Assembly (NCBI GenBank): GCA_022768655.1
Contig: JALEQD010000045.1
Span: forward strand, 1 to 37,146
Direction: 5' to 3'
Source: Anaeroplasma sp.
GTDB taxonomy: Bacteria; Bacillota_I; Bacilli_A; Acholeplasmatales; Anaeroplasmataceae
Length of the DNA stretch: 37,146 nt
The stretch's first letter is position 1. Every line of letters starts with the position of its first letter. The notes under the pieces were generated by a model. The model was not told where the DNA came from, did no database searches, and saw only the letters and a list, made by a program, of their open reading frames with translations. Below are positions 385 to 15,459 of the stretch, in pieces. The position numbers and the translations under genes are program-made.

Positions 385-398
385 TCCAATTTTTAATG

Positions 399-427
399 TT
401 GACATATCTTTTATACTTTGATAAAAT
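399..427 (+). promoter_or_regulatory. rpsD promoter
   Basis: A perfect -35 TTGACA (399-404), a 17-nt spacer and a -10 TAAAAT (422-427) form a sigma-A promoter. Transcription should start near 434, leaving a leader of about 170 nt before rpsD. Confidence 0.8.
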
Positions 428-433
428 GGTATA

Positions 434-1204: not shown

Positions 1205-1229
1205 AAAAAAGCTCATATCGAGCTTTTTT
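1205..1229 (+). terminator. rpsD intrinsic terminator
   Basis: AAAAAAGCTC (1205-1214) pairs with GAGCTTTTTT (1220-1229) around a 5-nt loop, beginning right after the rpsD stop codon, and the run of T continues after a C. Confidence 0.85.
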
Positions 1230-1236
1230 CTTTTTA

Positions 1237-1275
1237 AAATACTAAAGGCGGTGAATTTCACCGCCTTTAGTATTT
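1237..1275. terminator. 18-bp hairpin, likely bidirectional terminator
   Basis: The arms at 1237-1254 and 1258-1275 are perfectly complementary over 18 bp with an ATT loop; the GC-rich core is AAGGCGGTGA/TCACCGCCTT. It lies immediately beyond the stop of the minus-strand micro-ORF and behind the first rpsD terminator, so it can end both transcripts. Confidence 0.75.
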
Positions 1276-1285
1276 AAATTTTATA

Positions 1286-1390
1286 CTATCTTTTAAATAA
1301 TCCTCTACAGTCCTCACCCATAGTTAATAATTTAGCAAACACTGCAACAATAATTACAGATAGTGTAAATGCTAATATATAACTTAACAT
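1286..1390 (-). CDS. 34-residue single-span membrane peptide
   Basis: A micro-ORF with a strong ribosome site (AAAGGAGA on the minus strand, about 8 nt before the ATG at 1388-1390). The product starts MLSYILAFTLSVIIVAVFAK and ends GEDCRGLFKR: one hydrophobic span of roughly 20 residues, then a short charged tail with one cysteine. It has its own -10 (TATAAT at 1429-1434, minus) and is followed by an 18-bp hairpin terminator at 1237-1275, so it looks like an independent transcription unit. No homology is recognised. It may be a small membrane-protein regulator, a toxin-like peptide or a stress peptide; function is unknown. Codon use is normal for the window. Confidence 0.65.
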   Translation of the reverse strand: MLSYILAFTLSVIIVAVFAKLLTMGEDCRGLFKR

Positions 1391-1404
1391 ACAATAATCT
1401 CCTT

Positions 1405-1434
1405 TTGTGATCTATTAATCACAATTAAATTATA
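1405..1434 (-). promoter_or_regulatory. Promoter -10 and 7-bp palindrome upstream of the membrane peptide
   Basis: The minus-strand -10 is TATAAT at 1434-1429. Just downstream is TTGTGAT-N6-ATCACAA (1405-1424), a perfect 7-bp inverted repeat abutting the ribosome site. It could be an operator at the transcription start or an mRNA hairpin limiting translation. No good -35 is seen. Confidence 0.45.
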
Positions 1435-1492
1435 TATCTAAAAAAAATAAATAAATAATGAAAGCATTTTATATTAGAATTGAAAGTGTTTA

Positions 1493-2149
1493 CTATGGAT
1501 TATTATTCATTAAATATTCTTCTACACCATAAAAAATTGAAGTACATAATAAATATTGATAATTAAAATCTAATAATTTTTTTAATTCATCATAATTTGT
1601 CATAAACCCACATTCTACTATTATAGTAGGTATAGATATCTTTTTTAACATATATATGTTATCTTTGACTAAAGGTTTTCTATCCGTATTTTTCATTATT
1701 TTTTTTATATTATTCATAACTTTATCTGCTAAAATACTATTTTCTTTATTGTTAATAGCGTAAAAAACCTGAGCTCCATGATATTGTGAATCAACAAAGC
1801 TATTCATATGAATTGATAAGCATAACATGCTTTGACTTCCATTAATTAATTCTATTCTTTTATTTAAATCATTTCTTTTTATGAATTCATTTTCACATAA
1901 ATCGATATCTTCTTCTCTTGTCATTGATACTATATAACCATTTTCTTCAAAAATCTTTTTTAAACACATTGAAATCTCTAAATTTAAATCACATTCCCTT
2001 TTTCCAAAATATACAGCACCAGGATCATATCCACCATGACCAGCATCAATAATTATTCTTTTTGTATTATTTTGAATGGTAGTTCCATTAACAATAAAAG
2101 TTGATGCAAGACAAATAACAAATGAAATTATAATTAATATTTTTTTCAT
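1493..2149 (-). CDS. N-acetylmuramoyl-L-alanine amidase (Amidase_3, CwlD-like)
   Basis: A 218-residue zinc amidase that would cut the amide bond between N-acetylmuramic acid and the stem peptide. Residues 1-22 form a signal peptide or signal anchor (MKKILIIISFVICLASTFIV). The catalytic domain follows with no additional binding domain: IIIDAGHGGYDPGA holds the first zinc histidine, RECDLNLEIS the glutamate ligand, LSIHMNS the second histidine, and IVECGFMTN the catalytic glutamate. Size and layout resemble B. subtilis CwlD, which acts in spore-cortex muramic-lactam formation, but the match alone does not prove sporulation. No convincing ribosome site is present; a TATAAT at 2155-2160 (minus) lies only 6 nt before the ATG, so the mRNA may be leaderless. 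Confidence 0.88.
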   Translation of the reverse strand: MKKILIIISFVICLASTFIVNGTTIQNNTKRIIIDAGHGGYDPGAVYFGKRECDLNLEISMCLKKIFEENGYIVSMTREEDIDLCENEFIKRNDLNKRIELINGSQSMLCLSIHMNSFVDSQYHGAQVFYAINNKENSILADKVMNNIKKIMKNTDRKPLVKDNIYMLKKISIPTIIVECGFMTNYDELKKLLDFNYQYLLCTSIFYGVEEYLMNNNP

Positions 2150-2205
2150 AATAAATTATATTTCAATAATTATCAAAAAATGAGTATATTTATTAAAAAT
2201 ATTTA

Positions 2206-2214
2206 TGATATAAT
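2206..2214 (+). promoter_or_regulatory. Extended -10 promoter of the esterase gene
   Basis: TGATATAAT is an extended -10 (TG-N-TATAAT) with start expected near 2221, a few bases before the AAAGGA ribosome site (2227-2232). Confidence 0.6.
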
Positions 2215-2240
2215 TAGTTTTAGAAGAAAGGAATAATCTA

Positions 2241-3050
2241 TTGATTATTGGTATGCAATCTATGGTAGAATATTATAAACTATATCTTCCAAAATCAAAG
2301 CGTGAAATTAAAATAGAGGTTTCAGGCCCTAGAAATAAAAATAATATTGTGTTTGATACAATGTATTTTCTAGATGGTCAAAACGCTTTTCATGATTCAC
2401 ATGCCGCATTTGGAAGATCGATAAGGGCAACAAAAAAGCTAAGCTTTGCCGCAAAGGAATTAAATAAAAGAATTTTAGGAATAGCAATCTATAATAGCGG
2501 AAGTAATCTAGGAAGAATAAATGAATATACTCCATTTAAAATCGATAATCCTGCTGAAAAAGAATGGTTACTGCATGATGTAAAAAATTGTCATAATTTT
2601 TGTGATGATCTTATTTTTACAATTATTCCTTTTATCGAAAAGCATTACAATGTAAGTAAAGATAAAAACCATAGATTCATCTATGGTTCTTCACTAGCAG
2701 CAATAACTGCTTTATATTTAGGATTCAAATATGATGTCTTCGGATATATTGGTTCATTTTCCACTGCTTCATTTTTATTTGAAGAAAAGCTACATAATTT
2801 TTTATTAGATAATAAGAAAAATATAAATGTATTTTTATATATTGGAAAAAATGAAAAATCAGATGATATATATGATGATACACTATATCTTAAATCATCA
2901 AAGAAACTATATAATTTATTTAAAAATAATAATATTAACACACGATTAGTTATAGATGTTAACGGAATACATAATGAAGAATATTGGGATAAGCATCTAT
3001 TAGATTTTATTAATTTTATTTATAATAATGATATTTTTTATACATATTAA
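2241..3050 (+). CDS. Putative alpha/beta-hydrolase esterase (Esterase D / enterochelin-esterase-like)
   Basis: A 269-residue cytoplasmic protein (no signal peptide). The order of motifs fits the esterase D-like fold: an oxyanion-type strand region with FLDGQNAFHD (about residues 44-53), a nucleophile elbow YGSSLAA (about 148-154, Ser catalytic), and a C-terminal GIHNEEYW (about 247-254) that would supply the catalytic histidine. Such enzymes hydrolyse acyl or siderophore esters; the substrate here is unknown. The start is a TTG at 2241, chosen because AAAGGA (2227-2232) is 8 nt upstream and the next in-frame ATG (2253) has worse spacing. It is monocistronic and ends in a bidirectional terminator. 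Confidence 0.75.
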   Translation: MIIGMQSMVEYYKLYLPKSKREIKIEVSGPRNKNNIVFDTMYFLDGQNAFHDSHAAFGRSIRATKKLSFAAKELNKRILGIAIYNSGSNLGRINEYTPFKIDNPAEKEWLLHDVKNCHNFCDDLIFTIIPFIEKHYNVSKDKNHRFIYGSSLAAITALYLGFKYDVFGYIGSFSTASFLFEEKLHNFLLDNKKNINVFLYIGKNEKSDDIYDDTLYLKSSKKLYNLFKNNNINTRLVIDVNGIHNEEYWDKHLLDFINFIYNNDIFYTY

Positions 3051-3086
3051 AAAAGTGAGGTTCATTTTTTTGAACTTCACTTTTTA
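3050..3086. terminator. Bidirectional terminator between convergent genes
   Basis: The arms AAAAGTGAGGTTCA (3051-3064) and TGAACTTCACTTTT (3071-3084) pair with one G-U across a T6 loop. A-rich and T-rich flanks give U-tracts both ways; it ends the esterase gene and the long minus-strand aro operon. Confidence 0.85.
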
Positions 3087-3099
3087 TTTTTATCTATTT

Positions 3100-3426
3100 T
3101 TAGCTTACTATGATTTGCCCGCTAAAAACATTAGCGAGTAAAATACAAACTAAAACAAATGCGATTACATTAATAATAATTGATATTAATGCTCCTATTC
3201 CACAATGCTTTGCGGTTAGGGGTTTTTCTTTTCTCCAACATAAAAATAGGATTAATCCAGCAAGTGGAAAAAAGAAAGATAATACACCAAGCCCAACACT
3301 TCCTCTATCTATAGAGGAATCTGAATGATGTGCATTAACAGTTACAAATTCATCAATTGAAGAACCACAATTTCTACAGAATTTATCATTTGGGTTAATT
3401 TCGTGCCCACAATTTCTACAAAACAT
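3100..3426 (-). CDS. Zinc-ribbon membrane protein
   Basis: A 108-residue protein with an N-terminal double CxxC zinc ribbon (FCRNCGHEINPNDKFCRNCGS, cysteines at about 3, 6, 17 and 20), a short polar linker, and two hydrophobic segments (about residues 46-64 and 78-101). This is the common 'zinc-ribbon domain plus small membrane domain' architecture of Firmicutes; its role is not known. The ATG is preceded by TGGAGG. It follows the GltD-like gene by 17 nt and is probably the last gene of the aro transcript, because the next feature is the bidirectional terminator at 3050-3086. Confidence 0.75.
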   Translation of the reverse strand: MFCRNCGHEINPNDKFCRNCGSSIDEFVTVNAHHSDSSIDRGSVGLGVLSFFFPLAGLILFLCWRKEKPLTAKHCGIGALISIIINVIAFVLVCILLANVFSGQIIVS

Positions 3427-3443
3427 AGCTAAAAACCTCCATA

Positions 3444-4736
3444 TTATTTATTCTCTTCATAAACTAGCTTAGCAAATTCTCTACCACAGCGCATAGCCTC
3501 AACCACAGTTTTTGCACCTAAATAGATATCTCCACCTGCATATATTTTTTCTATATTAGTTTTACCATTTGAAGCTACAATATATCCATGATCAGTATTT
3601 AATATCTTCTTATCATATATATCTTCTGGTATTTGACCAATTGCTGAAATAATAAAATCACAATCAATATCAATGAACTCATTTGTTCCGACAGGCTTTC
3701 TTCTACCTGATTCATCTGGTTCAGTAAGTTTCATAACCTCACACTTTACCCCTGTAACATGATTATCACCTAATACCTTTACAGGATTAGTAAGGAATTT
3801 AAATTCAACTCCCTCCTCTAAAGCATCATGAATCTCATGCTTTGTCGCAGGAGCCTCTTCTAAGCTTCTTCTATATGCGATTATAACCTTATCTGCACCC
3901 AAACGAACAGCACTTCTTGCTGCATCCATCGCAACATTACCTGCTCCAACAACTACCACTGTACCATAAAGCTTAGGAAGATTTCCTACTTCAAGCTTAA
4001 CAGCATAATTAGATTCCTTTAATAAATCTAGGGCATCATATACACCTTCAAGTCCTTCATTTTCAATACCAAGTCTTCTTACCTTAGTAAGACCAGTAGC
4101 AATGAACACATAATCATATGAGTCCTTTAGCGCAATTATATCACTTTCAAGCATTTTTTTACCGAAAATGAAATTAGCCCCTAACTTTTTTACATCCTCA
4201 ACAACTCTTATTACATCCTGATAATCAAGCCTATAAGAAGGTATACCGTATGTCATTACACCACCAGCAGTATTTTCTTTTTCATAAATATCAACTTTAG
4301 CACCATAGCCTAATAATTCCTTTGCGGCAGATAAGCCAGCAGGACCTGCACCAATTATAGCAACCTTAACATTTATGCTGTTTTCTTTTGTTTTTTGAAA
4401 ATTAGTATTATTTTGAACATATCTTTCCAATGCCCCAACATTAATAGGAGTACCTTTTTTTCCTAATACACAATGTCCAACACATTGATTTTCATGAGGG
4501 CAAACAACTGAACAAATATTTGATAAGCTAGAACAGTCTGCAATAATTTTACTAGCCTCTTCTAAATTATCATTTTTAATTTCAAAGATAAAATCTCTTA
4601 TTCTCATACCTGTAGGACAACCTGTTTGACACATTGGCTTTTTACAAGATAAGCATCTTGATGCTTCTTTTTTTGCTTCTTCAGCTGTTAAATCAGCTGG
4701 TCTATTCCATTTATTTTCCATATACAATTGACACAA
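3444..4736 (-). CDS. GltD-like NAD(P)H oxidoreductase (Fe-S flavoprotein)
   Basis: A 430-residue homologue of the glutamate-synthase small subunit and of NfnL/SudA proteins. The N-terminus carries two cysteine clusters for 4Fe-4S centres (Cys 28, 31, 36, 40 and Cys 75, 79, 85, 89). An FAD-binding GAGPAGLSAAKEL begins near residue 129, and an NADPH-binding GAGNVAMDAARSA lies further on, followed by the conserved IISAIGQIPE and a terminal GGDIYLGAKTVVEAMRCG. No GltB or NfnS partner is nearby, so it may act as a free-standing electron-transfer flavoprotein or with a distant partner. It sits 20 nt after aroC and is probably cotranscribed. The start could be TTG at 4736 (10 nt after AAAGGA) or ATG at 4721; the first lies inside an inverted repeat. 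Confidence 0.85.
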   Translation of the reverse strand: MCQLYMENKWNRPADLTAEEAKKEASRCLSCKKPMCQTGCPTGMRIRDFIFEIKNDNLEEASKIIADCSSLSNICSVVCPHENQCVGHCVLGKKGTPINVGALERYVQNNTNFQKTKENSINVKVAIIGAGPAGLSAAKELLGYGAKVDIYEKENTAGGVMTYGIPSYRLDYQDVIRVVEDVKKLGANFIFGKKMLESDIIALKDSYDYVFIATGLTKVRRLGIENEGLEGVYDALDLLKESNYAVKLEVGNLPKLYGTVVVVGAGNVAMDAARSAVRLGADKVIIAYRRSLEEAPATKHEIHDALEEGVEFKFLTNPVKVLGDNHVTGVKCEVMKLTEPDESGRRKPVGTNEFIDIDCDFIISAIGQIPEDIYDKKILNTDHGYIVASNGKTNIEKIYAGGDIYLGAKTVVEAMRCGREFAKLVYEENK

Positions 4737-4745
4737 TACGTGTCA
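4729..4745 (-). promoter_or_regulatory. Inverted repeat over the GltD-like start codon
   Basis: TGACAC-AATAC-GTGTCA is a perfect 6-bp inverted repeat lying between the ribosome site and, in part, over the TTG start codon (4734-4736). In mRNA it would form a hairpin that could hide the start; in DNA it could be an operator. Confidence 0.4.
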
Positions 4746-4756
4746 TTCCTTTCTAT

Positions 4757-5755
4757 TTAAGCTTTATTTTTATATGCATTATTAATTAGCATAGCATCAC
4801 AAAGTGCAATTGCTAAGGCAGCCTCTAAAACTACTATAGCCCTTAAAATTATCGCAGCATCATGTCTTCCTTCAATGACTAGCTCTCTAACATTATGCTC
4901 TTTAAAGCTATATGTTTCTTGTGGAATGCTTATTGATGGTGTTGGCTTTACAAACACCTTTATTTCAATATCATTACCATTTGATATTCCACCATTGATA
5001 CCACCATTATTATTTGTTTTTGTTTTACCAAATTCATTTATAAAGCAATCATTAAATTCACTGCCCTTTAGGTTTTCACCATTAAATCCAATTCCAAATT
5101 CAACGCCCTTTACTCCACCAACTGAAAACAACAAATGTGAAATAGTTGACTCTAATGAATCAAAATATGGTTCTCCTAGACCTATGGGTACATTTTTAGC
5201 CTTTAGGCTTACTATTCCTCCAACACTATCATGATTTTCAATTGCTTTATCCAAAATTTCATTAAATTTTGATTGATCCTTTTCACCACATAAGCTGATA
5301 AGCTTACTTTCAAATACAACATCATCTAGCATTTTTTTAGCAACAACACCAGCACTAACAATTCCTAATGTTAATCTTCCTGAAAAGTGCCCTCCACCGC
5401 GATAGTCATTAAATCCATTATATTTTTTCATTGCAGTAAAATCTGCATGTGAAGGACGAGGATGATTAACCAAATTAGAATAATCCTTACTTTTTGTATT
5501 TGTATTTAAAAATCTTAATAAAATTGGAGCTCCAGTAGTTTTGCCATTAAACACTCCACTTTCAATATGAACCTCATCGGCTTCTATTCTAGGAGTAGTT
5601 CCCTTTCCACCTGACTTTCGTCTTTGAATATCAGTATAAAAATCCTCGCAGGATAATTCAATTCCAGGTTTTACACCATCTAATAAAATACCTACTGAGC
5701 TTCCATGAGATTCACCAAAAATATTAATTTGAAATAATCTTCCTATATGATTCAT
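4757..5755 (-). CDS. aroC: Chorismate synthase
   Basis: Catalyses the last common step, 5-enolpyruvylshikimate-3-phosphate to chorismate, needing reduced FMN. The signatures are clear: GRLFQINIFGESHGSSVG at the N-terminus, HPRPSHADFT with the active-site histidine, DYRGGGHFSGR, NNNGGINGGISNG, and GRHDAAIILRA near the C-terminus. At 332 residues it is shorter than the usual 350-390, but all signature blocks are present, so the gene appears intact. It overlaps aroE by 4 nt (ATGA), indicating translational coupling. No flavin-reductase domain is fused, so reduced flavin must come from elsewhere. Confidence 0.95.
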   Translation of the reverse strand: MNHIGRLFQINIFGESHGSSVGILLDGVKPGIELSCEDFYTDIQRRKSGGKGTTPRIEADEVHIESGVFNGKTTGAPILLRFLNTNTKSKDYSNLVNHPRPSHADFTAMKKYNGFNDYRGGGHFSGRLTLGIVSAGVVAKKMLDDVVFESKLISLCGEKDQSKFNEILDKAIENHDSVGGIVSLKAKNVPIGLGEPYFDSLESTISHLLFSVGGVKGVEFGIGFNGENLKGSEFNDCFINEFGKTKTNNNGGINGGISNGNDIEIKVFVKPTPSISIPQETYSFKEHNVRELVIEGRHDAAIILRAIVVLEAALAIALCDAMLINNAYKNKA

Positions 5756-6519
5756 ATTAATTCCTCTATTCTTTTTAATAAATCTGATATATTTAATGTG
5801 TATTTCTTATTTTGCCAAATTTCTTCTGCTTTAACAGCTTGACCAACTAGCATATATAATCCATCCATATCAGAATTAGCATCAATTAATAATTGTGTTT
5901 TTCTAGGATTAAATATTATATCAACCACATTTTTTGATCTTTTAGCAATTGATTTATCAATTGGTGATACACCTGTTTTAGGATACATTCCAATTGGAGT
6001 AGTATTTACTATAATATCTATCTTTTCTTTATCAAGCCTATCGTATCCAATACTCAAATCATCTTTTGGATTTCTTGATACAAATTTAACAATACCACCC
6101 ATGTCAATAAGAACCTTATATATGGCACGAGACGCTCCACCAGTACCTAAAATAAAGCAATTTTTATCTTTTACCTCAACATTAAAATGCTTTAGCTGTT
6201 CATAAAACCCATAATAATCAGTATTATATCCCACAAGCTTACCATTTTCTAACGCTACCGTATTTACACTTCCAATTTTTAATGCTTCATCTGAAATAAT
6301 ATCTAAATATTTCATTATTTCAACCTTATATGGAATTGTAACATTATATCCAGAATATTCTAAGCTTTTAAGCTTTTCAAGCTGAGGTTTTAAATCCTCA
6401 ATTTTTAATTCTATTAATTCATATGAAGCATCAATATTTAAATCCTTAAATATTTCATTATGAATTAAAGGTGAATAGCTATGTGATAGCTTTTCTCCTA
6501 ACAGTGCATATTTTTTCAA
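5752..6519 (-). CDS. aroE: Shikimate dehydrogenase
   Basis: Reduces 3-dehydroshikimate to shikimate with NADPH. The 255-residue product begins KKYALLGEKLSHSYSPLIHN (substrate-binding SxS loop and active-site region), has NVTIPYK with the catalytic lysine, GYNTDYYGF with the catalytic aspartate, and the NADP-binding ILGTGGASRAI. The start codon is TTG at 6519, directly after the stop of the chorismate-mutase gene; no in-frame ATG would keep the N-terminal substrate loop, and AAGGA lies about 10 nt upstream. The 3' end overlaps aroC by 4 nt. Length is slightly below the family norm of about 270. Confidence 0.94.
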   Translation of the reverse strand: MKKYALLGEKLSHSYSPLIHNEIFKDLNIDASYELIELKIEDLKPQLEKLKSLEYSGYNVTIPYKVEIMKYLDIISDEALKIGSVNTVALENGKLVGYNTDYYGFYEQLKHFNVEVKDKNCFILGTGGASRAIYKVLIDMGGIVKFVSRNPKDDLSIGYDRLDKEKIDIIVNTTPIGMYPKTGVSPIDKSIAKRSKNVVDIIFNPRKTQLLIDANSDMDGLYMLVGQAVKAEEIWQNKKYTLNISDLLKRIEELI

Positions 6520-6789
6520 TTAAATCAAATCCTTCTGATAATCCTTTGAAGCATTTAAAACACCTTCAAAAAATGTCTTATAATATTTTTCTAATTCCTT
6601 AGAATTTAATAATTTTATATTCTTTTCTATTAATAATTTTTCTCTAGCTTCATCTAAAATTGGCATATTTACATCCTTTTTATATTCAGCAACCATTTTT
6701 GAAGCAGCCATCCTTTTTTTAAAAAGCTCAATCATTTCAGCATCAACTGCATTAATAATCTCTCTTGCCTCATCTAATTTATTTTTCAT
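6520..6789 (-). CDS. Chorismate mutase (AroQ type, monofunctional)
   Basis: An 89-residue all-helical chorismate mutase, chorismate to prephenate. The start taken is the ATG at 6787-6789 (MKNKLDEAREIINAVDAEMI), because GGTGGAG lies about 9 nt upstream and the family begins here; a longer reading upstream only runs inside aroA in another frame. Key AroQ features are visible: the N-terminal LDEAREIINAVDAEMIELFKKRM helix with the active-site Arg/Lys set, and a helix containing VAEYKKD. It overlaps the aroA end by 11 nt and abuts aroE, so all three should be translationally coupled. It is not fused to prephenate dehydratase or dehydrogenase. Confidence 0.88.
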   Translation of the reverse strand: MKNKLDEAREIINAVDAEMIELFKKRMAASKMVAEYKKDVNMPILDEAREKLLIEKNIKLLNSKELEKYYKTFFEGVLNASKDYQKDLI

Positions 6790-8044
6790 ATTCAATATCT
6801 CCACCAATAGATTCAAATACTTCCCAGAAATTAGGAAATGATTTTGATACACATTCAGCATTATTAATTTTAATATTACCTTTTGATTTTAATGATGCCA
6901 TTGCAAGCGCCATTGCAACTCTATGATCATTATGTGAATCAACCTCACCACCAGTTAAATAATCAACACCAGTGATAACCATCCCATCTTTGTTTTCTTC
7001 TATTTTAGCTCCAAGCTTATTTAATTCTTCCTTCATGCATGTTATTCTATCACATTCTTTTATTCTTAATCTTGAAGCATTAATAAATTCTGTTACTCCT
7101 TTAGTTAAGGATGCCAAAACAGTTAAGGCTGGACCAAGATCAGGAGATTGAGAAAAATCAATAACACATGCATTAGCCTCAAATGGCTTCAATTTTATTT
7201 GATCACTTGAAAACTCTATTTTTCCACCAAAATCCTTAATGTCATTTAATATTTTTTTGTCTCCTTGATGAGAGTCCTTATTCATAGCGCATAAAGTTAC
7301 ATCAGCTCCTAATGCATCAGCAACTAAGAAAAAGGCAGACTGAGAAAAATCTCCTTCGATTGTATAATCACAAGGTTTAAATTCTTGATTACCCTTAATA
7401 TAAAAATCAGTATAATTATTATTTTCTATTTCAATTCCAAATTTATGCAAGATATCTAATGTCAAATCTATATATCCCTTTGATTCTAGATTTGTAGTAA
7501 TATGAATCTGACTATCCTTATCAAGCATAGGAAGAGCATATAATAACCCAGTAATAAATTGAGAAGAAATATCTCCTCTTATTTCAAATTTACCAGGCTT
7601 TAAGCCTCCATTTACCTCAAGTGGTAAATAATCATTTCCATATTTATAAGGAATTTGTTCCTTATCAAATATTTCAAAAAAAGTATCTAATGGTCTTTTA
7701 ACTAAATGATTATGACCAATAAATGTTATTTTTTCAGGACATACTAGCGCAATTGGAATCATAAAGCGGATTGTTGATCCAGATTCATATGCATCAATAA
7801 TATTTTCCTTTCTTACTACCTTGCTGCCATATATTTCTAGGCTTGTTGGATGCTCGATTATTGTTGCACCGCAAGCTCTCATTGCACCAATTGTTGCCTT
7901 TATATCCTTTGAATATAAAACATTAGAAATTATACTTTTCCCAGATGCCAAACCTGCAGCAATAATAGCTCTATGTGATAAGCTTTTTGAAGGTGGAATT
8001 ATTACATTACCTGAAAGCTTTTTAGGTTTAACTATTACATTCAT
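6779..8044 (-). CDS. aroA: EPSP synthase (3-phosphoshikimate 1-carboxyvinyltransferase)
   Basis: Condenses shikimate-3-phosphate with PEP. The 421-residue protein has the N-terminal PPSKSLSHRAIIAAGLASG (PEP and S3P binding), GDISSQFITGLLYALP, the RIKECDRI block with key Arg/Lys/Glu residues, and the C-terminal NDHRVAMALAMA. The loop that in class I enzymes reads GNAGTAMRP is here YESGSTIRFM: the glycine equivalent to E. coli Gly96 is kept, but neighbouring Thr97 and Pro101 positions differ, so inhibitor sensitivity cannot be assumed. It overlaps aroB by 4 nt upstream and the mutase gene by 11 nt downstream. Confidence 0.95.
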   Translation of the reverse strand: MNVIVKPKKLSGNVIIPPSKSLSHRAIIAAGLASGKSIISNVLYSKDIKATIGAMRACGATIIEHPTSLEIYGSKVVRKENIIDAYESGSTIRFMIPIALVCPEKITFIGHNHLVKRPLDTFFEIFDKEQIPYKYGNDYLPLEVNGGLKPGKFEIRGDISSQFITGLLYALPMLDKDSQIHITTNLESKGYIDLTLDILHKFGIEIENNNYTDFYIKGNQEFKPCDYTIEGDFSQSAFFLVADALGADVTLCAMNKDSHQGDKKILNDIKDFGGKIEFSSDQIKLKPFEANACVIDFSQSPDLGPALTVLASLTKGVTEFINASRLRIKECDRITCMKEELNKLGAKIEENKDGMVITGVDYLTGGEVDSHNDHRVAMALAMASLKSKGNIKINNAECVSKSFPNFWEVFESIGGDIEYEK

Positions 8045-9069
8045 TTTAAAAATTTCTCCTTAATTTCAGCCTCTGTTAATTTATAAATCATACATTTACC
8101 AAGCTCTTCCAAAAAAATAAAGCTTATTGTACCAGCCAAATTCTTTTTATCATAAAATACATCATTTAAATATTCCTTATAAGGATAAACATTTCTTGGT
8201 AAATTATATAATTTTAATATATCATCAATCGTATTATAGCATTCCTTTGGTGTTACACCTAAATCAATCCCCATCTGGATTGCCATAAGCATTCCTATCG
8301 CAACAGCCTCACCATGCTTATAACCATATTTTAATTCAATCGCATGTCCAAATGTATGTCCAAAATTTAATGTCATTCTTTCATTCAAATCAAATTCATC
8401 CATCTCTACTACTCTTTTTTTCACAGATAAGCTCTCAAAGATAACATTCTCATCTATTATTGGTTTATTTTTTAGCATATTAAGTAAATTAATATTACCT
8501 ATAGCACCATGCTTAATTAATTCACCCATTCCATTATTAAACTCCTTTGGATCTAAAGTATCTAAGGTATTTGGATCAATTAACACAAGTGAAGGCTGCT
8601 TAAATGCTCCTAGGATATTTTTTCTTCCTGCAAAATCAATTCCTGTTTTTCCGCCAATTGAAGAATCCATTTGGCTTAATAGGGATGTAGGAATACCAAT
8701 ATATGAAATACCTCTATATAATGTTGCCGCAACAAAACCAGTTAAATCACCAATAACACCGCCGCCTAAGGCTAACAGCATATGATTTCTTTTAACTCCT
8801 TTATTAATAAGCTCTTCACAAATATATGCATATTTTTCAATTGTCTTTGACATTTCACCATGTGGTATTACCACATAATCTAAATCAAAATCAGCTAATG
8901 AGGAAATAACCTTATTTAGGTATAGCTTTTCAACCACATCATCAGTGATAATAAATATTTTTTTATTACTATAAACTTCCTTAATATATAAGCTTAATTT
9001 ATCTAACAAACCATTTTCAATAACAATTTTATAAGATGTATATTTTAGATTAATATTTAATGTTTTCAC
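8041..9069 (-). CDS. aroB: 3-dehydroquinate synthase
   Basis: Converts DAHP to 3-dehydroquinate using NAD and a divalent metal. The 342-residue protein shows the NAD-binding LLALGGGVIGDLTGFVAATLYRG, the IPTSLLSQMDSSIGGKTGID segment, and metal-ligand motifs NFGHTFGHAIE and GYKHGEAVAIGM, plus MGELIKHG. Length is typical. It overlaps tyrA upstream and aroA downstream by 4 nt each. DAHP synthase, 3-dehydroquinate dehydratase and shikimate kinase are not in this window, so the pathway must be completed from other loci. Confidence 0.96.
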   Translation of the reverse strand: MKTLNINLKYTSYKIVIENGLLDKLSLYIKEVYSNKKIFIITDDVVEKLYLNKVISSLADFDLDYVVIPHGEMSKTIEKYAYICEELINKGVKRNHMLLALGGGVIGDLTGFVAATLYRGISYIGIPTSLLSQMDSSIGGKTGIDFAGRKNILGAFKQPSLVLIDPNTLDTLDPKEFNNGMGELIKHGAIGNINLLNMLKNKPIIDENVIFESLSVKKRVVEMDEFDLNERMTLNFGHTFGHAIELKYGYKHGEAVAIGMLMAIQMGIDLGVTPKECYNTIDDILKLYNLPRNVYPYKEYLNDVFYDKKNLAGTISFIFLEELGKCMIYKLTEAEIKEKFLK

Positions 9070-9899
9070 TTTTCCATCTCTTTTCTTATTTTAGTAGCTG
9101 AGATAAATAACTCCTGCAAAGCTTTTTTATCTTCATTTTGAATTGCATTTTTCAACAAATCTAATTCATGCTCAAATGATTTTATATGAGCTAATAAATA
9201 TTCCTTATTTCCTAAAAACAACTCACTCCATAAATTCTCATTAATCATTGCGATTCTAGTTAAATCTCGATAGGAATCACCTATATAACGCTTTGTTTCA
9301 GAATCATGATCACTGTTTACTAATGATACAGCAATTGCGTGAGTCAATTGGCTTGTAAAGCCAATCATCTCATCATGACGATGAATAGACATTGTTGAAA
9401 ACCTAGAAAAGCCTAAATCCTTACCTAATTGATTAATTACTTCAATTGTAGAATATGGGGTTAAAGATGTTGGGGTAACTAAAAAATTAGCACCCTCAAA
9501 AACAACCTGTTCAGAATATTCAATACCATTTTTTTCCTTTCCTGCCATTGGATGATGAGAACAATATATTGCAGGCATTGCTAAGCTAGTAGCTTCTTCA
9601 ACAAAAGAAGATTTTATACCACATAAATCAGTAATAATTTGCTTATCATTAAATAAAAAATTATATTTTTTGATAAAATCTATAATATTTCTAGGATAAA
9701 ATGATAAAACAATAATATCAGACTTCTTTATATAATCATCAGGCTTTGTCCCACCATCAATTATATATCCTTTTTCTTTAGCATAGGTAATAGCTTTTTC
9801 ATTAATATCACAGCCATAAACATTATAGCCCTTTTTACTTAATCTATATGCATAGGCTCCGCCCATAAGTCCTAATCCAACAATTAATACGTTTCTCAT
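9066..9899 (-). CDS. tyrA: Prephenate dehydrogenase
   Basis: Oxidative decarboxylation of prephenate to 4-hydroxyphenylpyruvate in tyrosine synthesis. The 277-residue protein has an N-terminal Rossmann motif VLIVGLGLMGGAYAYRL, the substrate histidine region YCSHHPMAGKEKNG, and the conserved HDEMIGFTSQLTHAIA helix. It lacks a C-terminal ACT domain, so direct tyrosine feedback through ACT is unlikely. It is the first gene of the aro operon; AAGGA is about 6 nt before the ATG. It overlaps aroB by 4 nt. No prephenate dehydratase is nearby, so the operon covers the tyrosine branch only. Confidence 0.92.
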   Translation of the reverse strand: MRNVLIVGLGLMGGAYAYRLSKKGYNVYGCDINEKAITYAKEKGYIIDGGTKPDDYIKKSDIIVLSFYPRNIIDFIKKYNFLFNDKQIITDLCGIKSSFVEEATSLAMPAIYCSHHPMAGKEKNGIEYSEQVVFEGANFLVTPTSLTPYSTIEVINQLGKDLGFSRFSTMSIHRHDEMIGFTSQLTHAIAVSLVNSDHDSETKRYIGDSYRDLTRIAMINENLWSELFLGNKEYLLAHIKSFEHELDLLKNAIQNEDKKALQELFISATKIRKEMEK

Positions 9900-9958
9900 A
9901 ATAATCCTTCTTTTCTTAGATATTTCTCAAAAAACAATGTGTTTTAAAAAATATCGAT

Positions 9959-10003
9959 ATTATATAATTTTTACCATATTTTCAATAATTTTTCAATATT
10001 ATA
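9959..10003 (-). promoter_or_regulatory. Probable aro operon promoter region
   Basis: On the minus strand two TATAAT hexamers occur (9964-9959 and 10003-9998), the first with TTGAAA (9985-9980) about 15 nt upstream. No T-box or other riboswitch pattern is visible in the roughly 130 nt before tyrA. Confidence 0.4.
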
Positions 10004-10033
10004 TACGATAAGATATTAATAATAACAAATAAA

Positions 10034-10048
10034 AGCCACAATGTGGCT
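10034..10048. terminator. Small hairpin between aro operon and XRE gene
   Basis: AGCCAC-AAT-GTGGCT with T-rich DNA on its minus-strand side (TTTTATTTG) resembles a weak terminator for minus-strand readthrough. Confidence 0.45.
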
Positions 10049-10085
10049 AAAATTTTAATTTTGTATTTTAATTATTAATAAAAAA

Positions 10086-10094
10086 TGCTATAAT
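10086..10094 (+). promoter_or_regulatory. Extended -10 promoter of XRE gene
   Basis: TGCTATAAT (TG-N-TATAAT) places the start near 10101, only about 13 nt before the first possible ATG. Confidence 0.6.
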
Positions 10095-10113
10095 GGATAT
10101 TGTCTAGCAATAG

Positions 10114-10425
10114 ATGCATACAAAAAAAATAATAGAAAATTATAAAACTAATAGAAAGAGGATAGAAAATTATTCTATCAATGAAAGGTATGCATATATG
10201 AATAGACAAATAACAAAACAGGGACTAGCACGTGTCCTAAAACAAATACGTGTTGATAACAATTTAACTCAGCAGGAGCTTGCAGATATTCTTTTTTGTG
10301 ACATACGTCAAATTAGACGATATGAAACAGAAGGTACTGATAAGCTTACAGTAATTAATCTGTATGCTGAAAAATTTAAAATTAATTCATTAAGCATTTT
10401 GAGCTTAGCTCAAGATGCTTTTTGA
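10114..10425 (+). CDS. Small XRE-family HTH transcriptional regulator
   Basis: Up to 103 residues. A helix-turn-helix of the Cro/CI type fills the C-terminal two thirds: LARVLKQIRVDNNLTQQELADIL then CDIRQIRRYETEG, the usual recognition-helix pattern. There is no effector domain. The start is uncertain: ATG 10114 has no ribosome site but is close to the mapped promoter, while ATG 10198 has AAAGG 9 nt upstream and would give a 75-residue protein beginning MNRQITKQGLARVL. A 13-bp hairpin with a U-rich tail is built into the last codons. It is flanked by the large structured RNA and could control it or be only a neighbour; small lone XRE proteins are also typical of prophage remnants. Confidence 0.75.
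   Translation: MHTKKIIENYKTNRKRIENYSINERYAYMNRQITKQGLARVLKQIRVDNNLTQQELADILFCDIRQIRRYETEGTDKLTVINLYAEKFKINSLSILSLAQDAF
10392..10420 (+). terminator. Terminator hairpin inside the 3' end of the XRE gene
   Basis: The arms 10392-10404 and 10408-10420 pair over 13 bp (one G-U) around a TTA loop, followed by TTTGATTTT. The stop codon is at 10423-10425, so the terminator stem is coding. Confidence 0.7.
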
Positions 10426-10431
10426 TTTTAT

Positions 10432-10460
10432 AGGACATTTCTTGTCCTCACTTCTTTTTT
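10432..10460 (+). terminator. Second terminator hairpin after the XRE gene
   Basis: AGGACA (10432-10437) pairs with TGTCCT (10443-10448); a T-rich run follows at 10452-10463. It insulates the XRE gene from the RNA gene downstream. Confidence 0.55.
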
Positions 10461-10470
10461 TTATTAGCAT

Positions 10471-10476
10471 TATAAT
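10471..10476 (+). promoter_or_regulatory. -10 element of the large structured RNA
   Basis: A perfect TATAAT whose expected start (about 10483) coincides with the first base of the RNA's closing helix. No good -35 is seen; TTGTCC at 10442-10447 is too far. Confidence 0.5.
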
Positions 10477-10482
10477 AAAAGT

Positions 10483-10994
10483 GCATTGGACCCCAGTGAA
10501 CTCCATCTTGCAAATGGCTGGGACCTAACCAAGATAGATTTTAATGTGGGATACTGCATTAAAATCAAGACCAAATGGTATCCGAGATTAAAATATCGCT
10601 TTGGTTAGCGGTGCAATACGCTCTTCGATGTAAACGATCACCCGAATAGGCACGACAAGAGGCTCTGCAGCGATGCATCCCACGAATAGATGCTAGCCTG
10701 AGAAACTGGCTTCTACGTTCTCAAAGGAAGTGTGTGGCTTGATGCTGAGTAATCAGCTATAACTATTTTGGTGAGTATTAGTAGGAGAATGCCAATTTTA
10801 ATTTGATATTGTATGAGATATTAATAGCTGAAGCTCTCTGAAAGTTGAAGGATAATATAGTTCCTTCCGTTGTTCGGTTAAAAACCCATTCCAGTAGTAA
10901 TAGGGTAGCTCCCAATTACTCAGCCTGGCGTGAACGTGCGTGAATAACAAATTAGAGTAAGTATTGTATGACGAAGGTCGGCAATGCTTTTTTT
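10483..10994 (+). ncRNA. Large ornate structured non-coding RNA (about 505 nt), class unassigned
   Basis: No ORF of note, but clearly more GC than its neighbours (10621-10680 has 32 G+C of 60). The ends pair: GCATTG 10483-10488 with CAATGC 10982-10987, followed by T7 (10987-10994 region). Internal helices: CCCAG 10492-10496 with CTGGG 10518-10522; CTAACCAA 10525-10532 with TTGGTTAG 10601-10608, enclosing a perfect 10-bp hairpin 10537-10546/10557-10566 whose loop GGATAC (10549-10554) pairs with GTATCC (10578-10583), a pseudoknot; AGCC 10695-10698 with GGCT 10708-10711, whose loop TGAGAA (10699-10704) pairs with TTCTCA (10718-10723), a second pseudoknot; GCTGAGTAAT 10744-10753 with ATTACTCAGC 10915-10924; CAGCTAT 10754-10760 with ATAGCTG 10824-10830; GAAGGA 10847-10852 with TCCTTC 10862-10867. 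It is not recognisable as RNase P, tmRNA, SRP RNA or a group I/II intron. Size and style recall ROOL, OLE or GOLLD RNAs, but I cannot assign a class from memory. Confidence 0.85.
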
Positions 10995-10997
10995 CTT

Positions 10998-11831
10998 TTA
11001 TTCAATGAATTTTACAATATATCCTACTCCAATTGAATTAAGTCCAATCCTACTACCAATAATTGCTGGTATAGGATATGACTTGATTTTTTTTGCACCA
11101 GGAGTAATCTTATATAATTTTTCTTCTATGATAGGTAAATATGCAGAAGATTTTGTCATATATAAAATAAATGGAATGACATCAGAATCCTCTGTTTCAG
11201 TTTCATATATTTGAAATAGACTTAATAGGCTTTGATTATTTTTTGCCTTTTTCACAGATAATATCCTACCATCATCAATCTCATATAATTTACCGGAAGC
11301 TATTTTTTGAGTAATTTTTTGGCCATATTGATAATCATAGCTAGGATCAAATAAAAAAATATGATGATTTTTCTTTACATGCTCTAAAAAAACAACAACT
11401 TCATCCATTGTTTTTCCATTACTAAACATTTCATCAGCCATTATTGCCATATACGCAAGAGGAAAGCATGCACTATTAGAATCAAAAATTTTGTATTGTA
11501 CATCAGCTAAATCTGATACAGCAATTGAAACAGGTACAAATAAATCACAAAATTCTTGAGCTGATAGAATAAATAAAAATTGCTCATATCCTTCCTTTTG
11601 TGCTATTTCTATATATTCGTTTATTTTAGCATAATTTTGATATTCAAAGCTTAAATGTGCACTTGAATCATAAGTAATTCTATTATAAAATGATTCACTA
11701 TTCATATCGATGAAATCATCATATTTTTCTTCCTTTGAAAAACTTATAATTATAGGTATAGCTGATATATTTTTACTATGAGTAACATAATCAATCCCAG
11801 AGTTACTACAAACAAATATCTTTGTTTTCAT
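10998..11831 (-). CDS. DegV family protein (fatty-acid-binding)
   Basis: A 277-residue DegV-fold protein. In Gram-positive bacteria such proteins (FakB type) bind a fatty acid and present it to the kinase FakA for phosphorylation; no FakA/Dak2 partner is in this window. The N-terminus KIFVCSNSGIDYV corresponds to the family DSxxDl start, though here the first Asp is replaced by Asn-Ser-Gly. The C-terminal motif GSRIGLNSIGVGYIVKF matches the HxGPGxxGvgy region but lacks the usual His-x-Gly-Pro-Gly, so it is a divergent member. A TGGTATAAT extended -10 lies at 11903-11895 (minus) and GGAGG precedes the ATG. Its stop codon at 10998 faces the 3' end of the structured RNA. Confidence 0.75.
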   Translation of the reverse strand: MKTKIFVCSNSGIDYVTHSKNISAIPIIISFSKEEKYDDFIDMNSESFYNRITYDSSAHLSFEYQNYAKINEYIEIAQKEGYEQFLFILSAQEFCDLFVPVSIAVSDLADVQYKIFDSNSACFPLAYMAIMADEMFSNGKTMDEVVVFLEHVKKNHHIFLFDPSYDYQYGQKITQKIASGKLYEIDDGRILSVKKAKNNQSLLSLFQIYETETEDSDVIPFILYMTKSSAYLPIIEEKLYKITPGAKKIKSYPIPAIIGSRIGLNSIGVGYIVKFIE

Positions 11832-11894
11832 AAAGCCTCCACAATAAACACAAAAACAAGCTTAATGCTTATTTTAGCAATCACTTTTGACACT

Positions 11895-11903
11895 ATTATA
11901 CCA
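11895..11903 (-). promoter_or_regulatory. Extended -10 promoter of the DegV gene
   Basis: Minus-strand TGGTATAAT (TG-N-TATAAT), directly behind the terminator of the upstream ABC operon. Confidence 0.6.
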
Positions 11904-11904
11904 T

Positions 11905-11935
11905 AAAAAAAGCTGACTAGTATTAATTAGTCAGC
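11905..11935 (-). terminator. Terminator of the first ABC exporter operon
   Basis: GCTGACTA (11912-11919) pairs with TAGTCAGC (11928-11935); on the minus strand a T7 tract (11911-11905) follows. The 5' arm includes the last codons and stop of the ABC gene. Confidence 0.85.
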
Positions 11936-13711
11936 ATTTTTACAATTAATATTATTATTCTTAAATTGACTATCATACATATCCTTATAATGCTTACAAT
12001 TATTATAAAGAGTATCATGAGTTCCCCTACCTACAATTTTACCTTGATCTAAAACAATTATTTCATCAGCATTTTTTATTGTCGATAATCTGTGAGCAAT
12101 AATAAACGTTGTTCTTCCCTTTGAGACAACATCCATTGCTTTTTTAATTTGCTCTTCGGTTTCAGAATCAATATTTGCGGTTGCTTCATCAAGTACTAAT
12201 ATTTTTGGGTTTCTAAGAAGAATTCTAGCAAAAGAAATAAGCTGTTTTTCACCTAATGATAGGTTTTCACCTCTAAAGGAAATAGGCATATTGATTCCTA
12301 AATCTGTTTTTTCTAGCATATAACCAGCACCAACTGCCTTCAGTACATTAATTATTTCCTCGTCGCTGTAGCAATCTCTTTCCATTGTTACATTTGATTT
12401 AATTGTACCCGCAAATAATGCAGGAGTTTGTAAAACAATACCTAGGTTCTTTCTGTAGGATGCCTTGTTGTATTCTTTTATATCCACTCCATCGACAAGC
12501 AGGCTTCCCTCTTGATAATCATTATAGCCTAATAAAAGATTCATCATTGATGATTTTCCACTTCCAGTGTGTCCAACAATTCCAATTGTTTTACCAGCTT
12601 CAACATGTAATGAAATATCATCTAAAACATATTTATCATCTACATATGCAAATCTAATATTTTTAAATTCAACCTCTCCAGCTATTTCCTTTGGTGCTTC
12701 CTTACCATCTAAAATCCTAGTATCATTTGCCTCATCAATAAATAAGAATACTCTTGTAGCACCAACCATTGAATCCTCAAGCTCATTTAGATTGTTAAAT
12801 ATAGCATTTACTGGGTTTATCATTTTATCTAGGTTTTCAACAAAGGCAGCAACTAAACCAACACTAATAGTAATTTCTGCAACCTCAATGCTTTGAAAGC
12901 CTAAAAATAACAACAAGCATACCTCGGCAGTTCTTTTTATTAATGATAATAATTCCCATCCAAAATAAATATTTACTGTATTAGCTTTTCTCTCATTATG
13001 AATATACTTTTTACATAGTGCTCTATAATCATCAAGCATTTCCTCCTCTTGATTAAAATCTTGAATAATTAAGGCACCAGTTATTAATTCATTAAGCTTT
13101 CCAGTGATTTTAGAGCCGGTTTCTCTTAAATCAACATAAAATTTATGAACCTTTTTTCTATATACTGTAATCCACAACAATAATATCGGAACAAGTACAA
13201 TAATTAATAATGCTAATCTAGGCTCAAGTACAATAACTCCAACATATACAATAATTATATTTAATAATGCATTAAATATTGAAAACAATGTTGTGTAAAA
13301 AACTCTAACTCCAGCACTATCACTAGTGATTTTAGCAACTATTTTTCCATCTGGCTCTAATGAATAATAATCAACAGGAAGATAATCTATTTTTCTAATT
13401 GCTTTTTCACGTACAGTTTTTTCAATATGCATTCCTGTAAGCTGATTTGCATATTGATATATATACCTTGTTATTACAGTAACAAATACAATTACACCAT
13501 AAACAATCAATGCCTTTGCTACCATATTATATTCATAATTTGGCAAATATACATCAAGTATTCTTTTAGTAATAAAAGGCGTTACTGCAGATAAAATTGA
13601 GATTACTATACTTAAAATTATTGTAATAATGAATAATTTTTTCTCTTGCTTAATGTAAGGCAAAGTTTTCTTAAACAGAGTTGTCTTTGAAAGAATTTCT
13701 TGTTTTTCCAT
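11927..13711 (-). CDS. ABC exporter half-transporter, catalytic subunit of a heterodimer
   Basis: A 594-residue type IV ABC exporter: six predicted membrane spans in the first 310 residues, then the ATPase domain. Walker A is GHTGSGKSS (near residue 380), the signature is LSLGEKQ, and Walker B reads ILVLDEATANID with the catalytic glutamate intact; the switch histidine is in IIAHRLST. The signature departs from LSGGQ, as expected for the canonical subunit of an LmrCD/BmrCD-type heterodimer in which the partner supplies the good signature. The partner gene is 2 nt upstream. Substrates cannot be deduced; multidrug or lipid export is typical. Confidence 0.93.
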   Translation of the reverse strand: MEKQEILSKTTLFKKTLPYIKQEKKLFIITIILSIVISILSAVTPFITKRILDVYLPNYEYNMVAKALIVYGVIVFVTVITRYIYQYANQLTGMHIEKTVREKAIRKIDYLPVDYYSLEPDGKIVAKITSDSAGVRVFYTTLFSIFNALLNIIIVYVGVIVLEPRLALLIIVLVPILLLWITVYRKKVHKFYVDLRETGSKITGKLNELITGALIIQDFNQEEEMLDDYRALCKKYIHNERKANTVNIYFGWELLSLIKRTAEVCLLLFLGFQSIEVAEITISVGLVAAFVENLDKMINPVNAIFNNLNELEDSMVGATRVFLFIDEANDTRILDGKEAPKEIAGEVEFKNIRFAYVDDKYVLDDISLHVEAGKTIGIVGHTGSGKSSMMNLLLGYNDYQEGSLLVDGVDIKEYNKASYRKNLGIVLQTPALFAGTIKSNVTMERDCYSDEEIINVLKAVGAGYMLEKTDLGINMPISFRGENLSLGEKQLISFARILLRNPKILVLDEATANIDSETEEQIKKAMDVVSKGRTTFIIAHRLSTIKNADEIIVLDQGKIVGRGTHDTLYNNCKHYKDMYDSQFKNNNINCKNAD

Positions 13712-13713
13712 AA

Positions 13714-15459
13714 TTAACTTCTCTCCTTACTATTCATTTGTTGTGAAATAAATTGTTCATAATACCATCCATGCTTATCAATCAGCTCTTGATGTGTACC
13801 TCTTTCAACTATTTTACCTTGATCTAAAACAATAATTTCATCTGCATGCATAACAGCCGAAAGTCTATGAGCAACAATAATATTAGTTCTTTTTGAACGA
13901 TACTTTTTAAGTGTATTAATTATATTTGCCTCAGTTTTACCATCTACAGCAGACAATGAATCATCTAAAATCAAAACATCTGCATCCTTTAAAAAAGCAC
14001 GCGCTATTGCCAATCTCTGCTTTTGTCCACCTGATAGTGTAACACCATATTCGCCAACTATAGTATCTAATCCCTGTGGTAAATTATCAATATCCTTTTC
14101 AAAATCAGCAAGCGTAATTGCATGCTCAATATCTTCTTCAGTTGCATTAGAATCTCCTAATGCAACATTTTTGTATACACTTCTTGAAAATAAAACATGC
14201 TCTTGTGGAACATAACCGATGTGATAACGAATATTTTCCTGTTCAAAATTTTCAATAGGCTCATTATTTATAAATAAAGAACCCTCACAAATAGGTAATT
14301 GTCTTACTAGCTGCTTAACTAAAGTAGATTTACCACTTCCTGTATGTCCAACAATACCTATTGTTTGACCTTCCTTAATTTTTAAATTAATATTTTGTAA
14401 TACATCATTTTTATCGCCATTATATCTAAAGGAAAAATCTTTGAATTCAATTTCCTTTACCTCATTGATTTTCTTTGCATCCTCATGGTCAATAATTTCA
14501 CTTTTTGAATCATATACTTCATTCAATCTTTGGGCAGAAATTAATGATTGATAAAAATTATTAATCATATTACCAATATTAGTTAGTGGAGCCTGGAACA
14601 AATTCAAATACATAACGAATTTAACTAATTGTGCAGTAGTAATATCACCCTTTGAATAAAAATAAGCTCCTAAGCCATAACAAATAATTGTAGATATTGC
14701 GACAATAGACTGAAACATCGGAATAAAAATAACATTAATTTTTAAATTATCCTTTTCAACCTTGTACGCATTATTAGAATATTTTATGTTTTTTTGATAA
14801 TTTTCTTCTTCCTTTGAAAATGCTCTTATAGTTCTAACATTTGTAATACTTTCAAGAACCACATTTCCCATTTCTGAATTTTTTTCTCTAACTATCTTCC
14901 AATTTCTTTTTACCTTTGCTCTTAAAAATAGATTAGCAAAAAAGATAAATGAAAGGGGAATAAAACAACATATAGCTAAAATTACATTAATAAAACACAT
15001 GGCAATAAATGTTATAACAACAGTAAGTGACTCTAAAAATATATTTAATAATCTATTACCACCACTAAATTTTACGGAATTAACATCACCAAGCGCTCTA
15101 GTTAATAAGTCACCAGATTGAAATTTTTCAAAAAATGTAGCATCCTGGACTAATATATTTTCCATATATCTAACCTGTAAAGCATAATAAAGAGTTGTTG
15201 TTAATCTATTTTGACAAAATCTTTTTGATGTAGCAATAAAATAAATACCAAGAGTAACTAGTAAAAAAGGAATTAAAAACTGCTTAAAAATATATTCCTT
15301 TGTTAATGTATTATTTTCAATTTGGGAAGAAAGATTACCTATAATTGTAGCAGGAATTAAATTTATAAATGCCAAAATTATTCCAAAAAATAACACAAAA
15401 ACATATCTATACCAATTTTTCTTAATAAACCACATCATGCTTTTGATAAATTTAAACAT
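13714..15459 (-). CDS. ABC exporter half-transporter, degenerate-site subunit of a heterodimer
   Basis: A 581-residue ABC exporter subunit. The start is the ATG at 15457-15459 because GGGAGGAG precedes it by about 7 nt; a longer reading starting at 15498 has no ribosome site. Six membrane spans precede an ATPase domain with Walker A GHTGSGKST, a perfect LSGGQKQR signature and Walker B VLILDDSLSAVD, in which the catalytic glutamate is aspartate. This is the hallmark of the subunit holding the degenerate nucleotide site. It is the first gene of the pair and should assemble with the next gene's product in the cytoplasmic membrane. Confidence 0.93.
   Translation of the reverse strand: MFKFIKSMMWFIKKNWYRYVFVLFFGIILAFINLIPATIIGNLSSQIENNTLTKEYIFKQFLIPFLLVTLGIYFIATSKRFCQNRLTTTLYYALQVRYMENILVQDATFFEKFQSGDLLTRALGDVNSVKFSGGNRLLNIFLESLTVVITFIAMCFINVILAICCFIPLSFIFFANLFLRAKVKRNWKIVREKNSEMGNVVLESITNVRTIRAFSKEEENYQKNIKYSNNAYKVEKDNLKINVIFIPMFQSIVAISTIICYGLGAYFYSKGDITTAQLVKFVMYLNLFQAPLTNIGNMINNFYQSLISAQRLNEVYDSKSEIIDHEDAKKINEVKEIEFKDFSFRYNGDKNDVLQNINLKIKEGQTIGIVGHTGSGKSTLVKQLVRQLPICEGSLFINNEPIENFEQENIRYHIGYVPQEHVLFSRSVYKNVALGDSNATEEDIEHAITLADFEKDIDNLPQGLDTIVGEYGVTLSGGQKQRLAIARAFLKDADVLILDDSLSAVDGKTEANIINTLKKYRSKRTNIIVAHRLSAVMHADEIIVLDQGKIVERGTHQELIDKHGWYYEQFISQQMNSKERS

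What the first reader, a model, noticed from the sequence alone, without database searches (positions are those of the whole stretch)
10483..10994. A large ornate non-coding RNA with paired ends and two pseudoknots
About 505 nt without coding potential, clearly GC-richer than its surroundings, with a TATAAT placed to start transcription at the closing helix (GCATTG 10483 with CAATGC 10982) and a T7 tract at the 3' end. Long perfect helices (8, 10, 10 and 7 bp) and two H-type pseudoknots (loop 10549-10554 with 10578-10583; loop 10699-10704 with 10718-10723) are readable by eye. Size and architecture are like ROOL, OLE or GOLLD RNAs, whose functions are largely unknown, but I cannot match it to a class; it may be new. 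It sits beside a lone XRE gene and no OLE-associated protein gene is present.
Basis: partly seen in the sequence, partly recalled or inferred. Interest (0 to 1): 0.88.

Follow-up and report, generated by a model that had tools for sequence, protein, structure and literature searches.

The report
ROOL nanocage RNA on a Ro60-type promoter
The large folded RNA is a member of the known ROOL family, whose members build hollow RNA cages of unknown function; what is new is that it sits exactly where related bacteria keep a Ro60-like RNA-binding protein gene, behind the same regulator gene and promoter, which gives a testable hint of what ROOL might do.

Summary
The RNA is real but not a new class: 10468-11000 matches Rfam RF03087 (ROOL) over all 574 model positions at 218.4 bits (cut-off 99.1), above the experimentally studied Ligilactobacillus salivarius ROOL (130.4 bits, same test). 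The first pseudoknot has no counterpart in nine homologues.

The new part is the setting. The 75-aa XRE gene upstream has close orthologues in five related genomes. In all five the next gene is a DUF2828 protein with a predicted Ro60 fold (Z 23.6). The own genome has no match to that protein's DUF7788 domain and carries ROOL there instead. All six loci share a palindrome AGGACAT-N4-TGTCCTCA (imperfect in two) exactly 20 nt before a -10 box, without a good -35. In the window that box places the start at ROOL's 5' end. So ROOL appears to have taken over an XRE-controlled promoter that elsewhere drives a Ro60-like RNA-binding protein. The swap is seen once, and no transcript was measured.

The parts
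10468..11000 (+). ROOL RNA, extent of the Rfam match; the likely transcript is 10483-10994
   Evidence: RF03087, 218.4 bits, model 1-574 of 574
10198..10425 (+). XRE-type (HTH_3/HTH_19-like) regulator, 75 aa; listed ORF starts at 10114 but the conserved start is 10198
   Evidence: weak Pfam HTH matches, alignment with five orthologues
10392..10420 (+). terminator-like hairpin inside the last codons of the XRE gene, separating it from ROOL
   Evidence: a similar hairpin is readable in the orthologues
10432..10450 (+). palindrome AGGACATTTCTTGTCCTCA, predicted XRE operator
   Evidence: shared by six loci with fixed spacing to the -10 box; only exact copy in the genome
10471..10476 (+). -10 box TATAAT, 20 nt after the palindrome; no good -35 box
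10483..10488 (+). 5' arm of the closing helix, pairs with 10982-10987; inferred transcription start
10982..10987 (+). 3' arm of the closing helix, followed by T7 at 10988-10994
10699..10704 (+). loop L8 (TGAGAA), one side of the predicted inter-subunit kissing bridge B4
   Evidence: covaries with 10718-10723 in 10 of 10 ROOLs; bridge B4 in PMC12286853; stem numbering inferred
10718..10723 (+). J6/8 (TTCTCA), other side of the predicted bridge B4
10790..10833 (+). AU-rich linker, the disordered and unconserved region of ROOL that lies inside the cage in published structures
   Evidence: alignment to the model; PMC12286853
10903..10913 (+). conserved hairpin GGGTAGCTCCC with palindromic loop AGCT (10907-10910), predicted L18 self-kissing bridge B6
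   Evidence: PMC12286853; assignment inferred

Best explanation
The element is a complete, diverged ROOL RNA gene at a chromosomal locus among housekeeping genes. It is transcribed from its own promoter, which is controlled by the small XRE protein encoded just upstream; the protein would bind the palindrome centred near -43, more likely as an activator than as a repressor because there is no good -35 box. The RNA would fold, pair with neighbouring copies through the L8-J6/8 kissing contact and the palindromic L18 loop, and build a hollow RNA cage around its AU-rich linker, as studied ROOLs do. In related genomes the same regulator and promoter precede a Ro60-like RNA-binding protein, so here ROOL has taken the place of a Ro60-type effector, probably in an RNA-related stress response. 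Shown: ROOL identity, compensatory changes in the assembly contact, conserved spacing of palindrome and -10 box, the predicted Ro60 fold. Inferred: XRE binding and direction of regulation, cage formation by this sequence, and any shared physiological role.
For: Rfam match 218.4 bits over the full model; positive control L. salivarius ROOL 130.4 bits; 114 of 144 model pairs kept, 56 changed on both sides; L8-J6/8 contact covaries in 10 of 10. XRE orthologues in five related genomes, each followed by a DUF2828-DUF7788 gene, which is absent from the own genome by the DUF7788 model. Palindrome to -10 distance exactly 20 nt in six of six loci, in none of 40 exact copies in viral contigs. Predicted fold of the DUF2828 protein matches Ro60.
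Against: The exchange is seen in one genome only. A second ROOL in the genus (G011) has no XRE orthologue, and the ORFs next to viral ROOLs do not look like HTH genes, so the partnership is not general. No transcript, binding or cage was measured. The palindrome can also be read as a second hairpin terminator of the XRE gene.
Confidence: 0.72

Rival explanations
1. ROOL is a passenger left by a phage or other mobile element that landed behind an XRE promoter whose original gene was lost. The promoter may drive it, but ROOL and the Ro60-like protein share no role.
For: ROOL is mostly known from phages and prophages (PMC12286853) and found in nine viral loci here; the exchange is seen once; ROOL in G011 has no XRE.
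Against: The RNA is complete and its assembly contact is kept by compensatory changes; its 5' end falls where the shared -10 box would start transcription; no phage genes are apparent in the 37 kb ORF list.
Confidence: 0.2
2. The palindrome is only a hairpin terminator of the XRE gene and ROOL has an ordinary constitutive promoter; XRE does not control ROOL.
For: The palindrome followed by T-rich sequence is listed as terminator-like; an exact TATAAT is present; L. salivarius ROOL is thought to be constitutive (PMC5643018).
Against: Another terminator hairpin already ends the XRE gene; the hairpin is weakened in G021 while the spacing of exactly 20 nt to the -10 box stays; further copies of the palindrome lie upstream of the XRE gene in G001 and G021; no good -35 box.
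Confidence: 0.2
3. A new class of ornate RNA.
For: No BLASTN match in phages or plasmids.
Against: Full-length Rfam ROOL match far above the cut-off.
Confidence: 0.01
4. The joint of XRE and ROOL is an assembly chimera.
For: The genome is a draft of 228 contigs with 3.35% estimated contamination.
Against: The joint lies well inside a 37 kb contig and keeps both the exact spacing of palindrome and -10 box and the fit of the -10 box to the ROOL 5' end.
Confidence: 0.04

Closest known systems
ROOL RNA (Rfam RF03087; env-120, E. faecalis and L. salivarius cages)
   Same: Full-length covariance-model match, closing helix, L8-J6/8 contact with compensatory changes, AU-rich linker, conserved GGGTNGCTCCC hairpin
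   Different: Too diverged for BLASTN; second hairpin of the first multiloop shortened; chromosomal, behind an XRE gene and a promoter shared with Ro60-type loci
Ro60/Rsr ribonucleoprotein loci (TROVE-vWA protein with Y RNA)
   Same: Same regulator, palindrome and promoter as the DUF2828 Ro60-like loci of related genomes
   Different: The window has no such protein gene at this place; the RNA is ROOL, not a Y RNA
L. salivarius pMP118 ROOL locus (LSL_1885)
   Same: ROOL beside a single-domain HTH gene; its HTH gene was suspected of a role in ROOL expression (PMC5643018)
   Different: HTH gene lies downstream and is not detectably related to the window XRE; megaplasmid, not chromosome
OLE and GOLLD RNAs
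   Same: Large ornate RNAs that self-associate (PMC12286853)
   Different: No Rfam match to either in the window

Membership tests
ROOL RNA (RF03087) | Covariance-model score above the curated cut-off over the whole model | tested here: met
   218.4 bits against 99.1, positions 1-574 of 574
ROOL RNA (RF03087) | Consensus helices kept with compensatory changes | tested here: met
   114 of 144 lettered pairs kept, 56 changed on both sides against the consensus
ROOL RNA (RF03087) | Conserved L8 with J6/8 contact (bridge B4) | tested here: met
   10699-10704 with 10718-10723; complementary in 10 of 10 sequences with changing letters; numbering inferred from the order of stems
ROOL RNA (RF03087) | Assembly into an RNA-only cage (octamer or hexamer) | not testable with these tools
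   needs cryo-EM or mass photometry
ROOL RNA (RF03087) | Abundant stable transcript | not testable with these tools
   no expression data at hand
Ro60 family (the DUF2828 protein of related loci, not in the window) | TROVE ring plus vWA fold | tested here: met
   model pLDDT 90.5; Ro60 2i91 Z 23.6, rmsd 3.8 over 411 residues, Thermus phage phiLo Ro60 Z 15.8
Ro60 family (the DUF2828 protein of related loci, not in the window) | MIDAS motif DxSxS...T...D | tested here: met
   D285 S287 S289 T353 D382 invariant in 50 sequences; motif as given in PMC11277228
Ro60 family (the DUF2828 protein of related loci, not in the window) | Binds Y RNA or misfolded RNA | not testable with these tools
   needs a binding assay; two conserved CAGCAA-type hairpins precede the gene

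The most novel reading that the evidence does not exclude
ROOL cages and Ro60-like proteins are interchangeable effectors of one XRE-controlled response: the RNA-only cage does a job like that of a Ro60 ribonucleoprotein, holding, protecting or sorting small RNAs such as tRNAs or misfolded RNAs under stress or phage attack. In keeping with this, phage Ro60-like genes cluster with tRNA genes (33 of 80 loci against 2 of 61 unmatched controls), a niche also known for ROOL.
Probability: 0.2. Interest if true: 0.88.

Novelty: new member of a known kind. Interest (0 to 1): 0.6.

Why it matters
ROOL cages have solved structures but no known function, and the published deletion mutant gave no clear answer (PMC5643018). 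A regulator and promoter shared with a Ro60-type RNA-binding protein is a concrete functional lead: one can ask what induces the XRE promoter, and what RNA the cage or the protein holds.

Tried and rejected
BLASTN of the RNA against phages and plasmids found nothing, nor did a viral ROOL as query: too diverged. Finding Ro60 relatives of the DUF2828 protein in the PDB by sequence failed, and the first fold model on 3 sequences was poor; only the 50-sequence alignment gave a good model. More distant XRE matches (G013, G020, G125, G126) have other neighbours and were not counted as orthologues. Exact palindromes in viral contigs look like chance: none has a TATAAT-like box at the right place and none lies by an XRE orthologue or DUF2828 gene. 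ORFs beside viral ROOLs do not look like HTH genes by eye, so an XRE partner is not general. ROOL searches with the covariance model beyond 21 genomes did not complete; the substitute motif pattern misses the ROOL of G011, so it is no measure of frequency. Pseudoknot 1 was rejected. A structure-based alignment of the ROOLs longer than 400 columns could not be modelled; MAFFT aligned them only in parts.

Full report
WHAT IT IS. It is the only copy found in the genome. As a yardstick, the ROOL of the L. salivarius UCC118 megaplasmid, whose level exceeds that of 16S rRNA (PMC5643018), scores 130.4 bits. I parsed the printed alignment: of 144 model pairs with letters on both sides, 114 still pair, and 56 of these differ from the consensus on both sides.

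THE TWO PSEUDOKNOTS. The second one, TGAGAA 10699-10704 with TTCTCA 10718-10723, has a counterpart in all nine other ROOLs read here, with changing letters on both sides: TGGC/GCCA, TGGA/TCCA, TGGT/ACCA, GGAA/TTCC. I picked the partners by eye from the alignment, so the count is descriptive and carries no P value. By the order of stems it is L8 with J6/8, which cryo-EM shows to be bridge B4, a kissing contact between neighbouring chains of the cage (PMC12286853). So it is probably an assembly contact and not an H-type pseudoknot inside one chain. The palindromic loop in GGGTAGCTCCC (10903-10913) fits L18, the self-pairing bridge B6. The stem numbering is my inference, since figures are not held. 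The first pseudoknot (10549-10554 with 10578-10583) has no equivalent in the nine others.

THE SETTING. By the ORF list the window holds ordinary chromosomal genes (rpsD, an aromatic amino acid operon, degV, ABC transporters, hisS) and no evident prophage. The small XRE gene, 10198-10425 by its conserved start, has close orthologues in G001, G007 and G021 of the same genus and in two genomes of a sister genus (loci L002 and L004). In all five the next gene is a DUF2828-DUF7788 protein. Within the genus that protein is found in exactly the three genomes that have the XRE orthologue, apart from G000, which has ROOL instead. A model of the protein built on 50 sequences (pLDDT 90.5) matches Xenopus Ro60 at Z 23.6 over 411 residues and the Ro60 of Thermus phage phiLo at Z 15.8. 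The MIDAS residues are invariant. The family is phrog_850, RNA-binding protein, and it occurs in 668 phage records, many named Ro-like RNA binding protein.

THE SHARED PROMOTER. Just after the XRE stop codon all six loci carry AGGACAT-N4-TGTCCTCA (one mismatch in G001, two in G021) and, 20 nt after it in each case, a -10 box: TATAAT in four, TATATT in G001, TATCCT in G021. The exact palindrome occurs once in the 2 Mb genome. Among 40 exact copies in viral contigs, many of them near-duplicates, none has a TATAAT-like box at that place, and an exact TATAAT at a given place has a chance of 0.0043 with the local base frequencies. There is no good -35 box, and the palindrome is centred near -43 from the inferred start at 10483, which suits an activator that touches RNA polymerase; repression is possible too. 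The XRE gene ends in its own terminator-like hairpin, so ROOL is probably a separate transcript. G001 and G021 have further copies of the palindrome upstream of the XRE gene, which suggests autoregulation.

READING. In related genomes this promoter precedes a stretch with two conserved hairpins of the type GCC..CAGCAA..GGC and then the Ro60-like gene. Here it precedes ROOL. I take this as a real exchange of effectors behind one regulator. That the two effectors share a task is a further step, which I hold at about one in five. A parallel encourages it: phage Ro60-like genes lie near tRNA genes in 33 of 80 loci against 2 of 61 controls (controls not matched for phage size), and ROOL too is known from tRNA islands (PMC12286853; five of the eight distinct viral loci here).

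LIMITS. The exchange is seen once. The genus contains one other ROOL (G011, 307 bits) without an XRE orthologue, so ROOL does not need this partner. The L. salivarius ROOL also lies beside a small HTH gene, suspected of a role in its expression (PMC5643018), but that gene is not detectably related. ROOL counts at order level could not be obtained. Absence of the Ro60-like gene from G000 was tested with the DUF7788 model only, in a genome about 95% complete. Whether related genomes keep the same neighbours as the window without ROOL could not be checked. Nothing here measures transcription, binding or assembly.

Noticed in passing
window 35761-37017: IS110-family transposase gene (DEDD_Tnp_IS110 plus Transposase_20) at the end of the window; its flanks could hold a bridge RNA.
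   Followed up: no
window 10103-10197: Leader of the XRE gene: GCATAC and GGTATGC are invariant in six loci and could pair over the ribosome-binding site; a small hairpin before them changes sequence but stays paired in several.
   Followed up: partly
L003 1798-2096, L004 3232-3648, L002 470-887, L027 6812-7065, L028 6092-6337 (minus): Two tandem hairpins with GCC..C(A/T)GCAA..GGC and changed but matching stem letters lie before each DUF2828 gene, a possible binding site of the Ro60-like protein or a Y-like RNA.
   Followed up: partly
viral loci L063-L142: Phage Ro60-like (DUF2828) genes lie near tRNA genes in 33 of 80 loci against 2 of 61 unmatched viral control loci; three of 20 scanned also have a tmRNA gene nearby.
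   Followed up: partly
L006 1770-2775: A ROOL (2174-2775) lies just after an ORF that reads like ribosome hibernation factor HPF/RaiA (1770-2138), judged by eye only.
   Followed up: no
L007 1373-1666 and L012 3689-3961 (minus): ORFs that read like HU-type DNA-binding proteins lie close to ROOL in two viral loci, judged by eye only.
   Followed up: no
L026 (G011 contig) 235-13547: The other ROOL of the genus (13793-14388) follows a run of large paralogous proteins sharing FFE..FN.TS.EY; three of them (235-2907, 3025-4116 and 12591-13547) have no PHROGs match.
   Followed up: partly
G021 contig C2 33396-33416 and C5 18419-18439: Further near-exact copies of the palindrome AGGACATTTTATGTCCT outside the XRE locus, possibly other members of an XRE regulon.
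   Followed up: no
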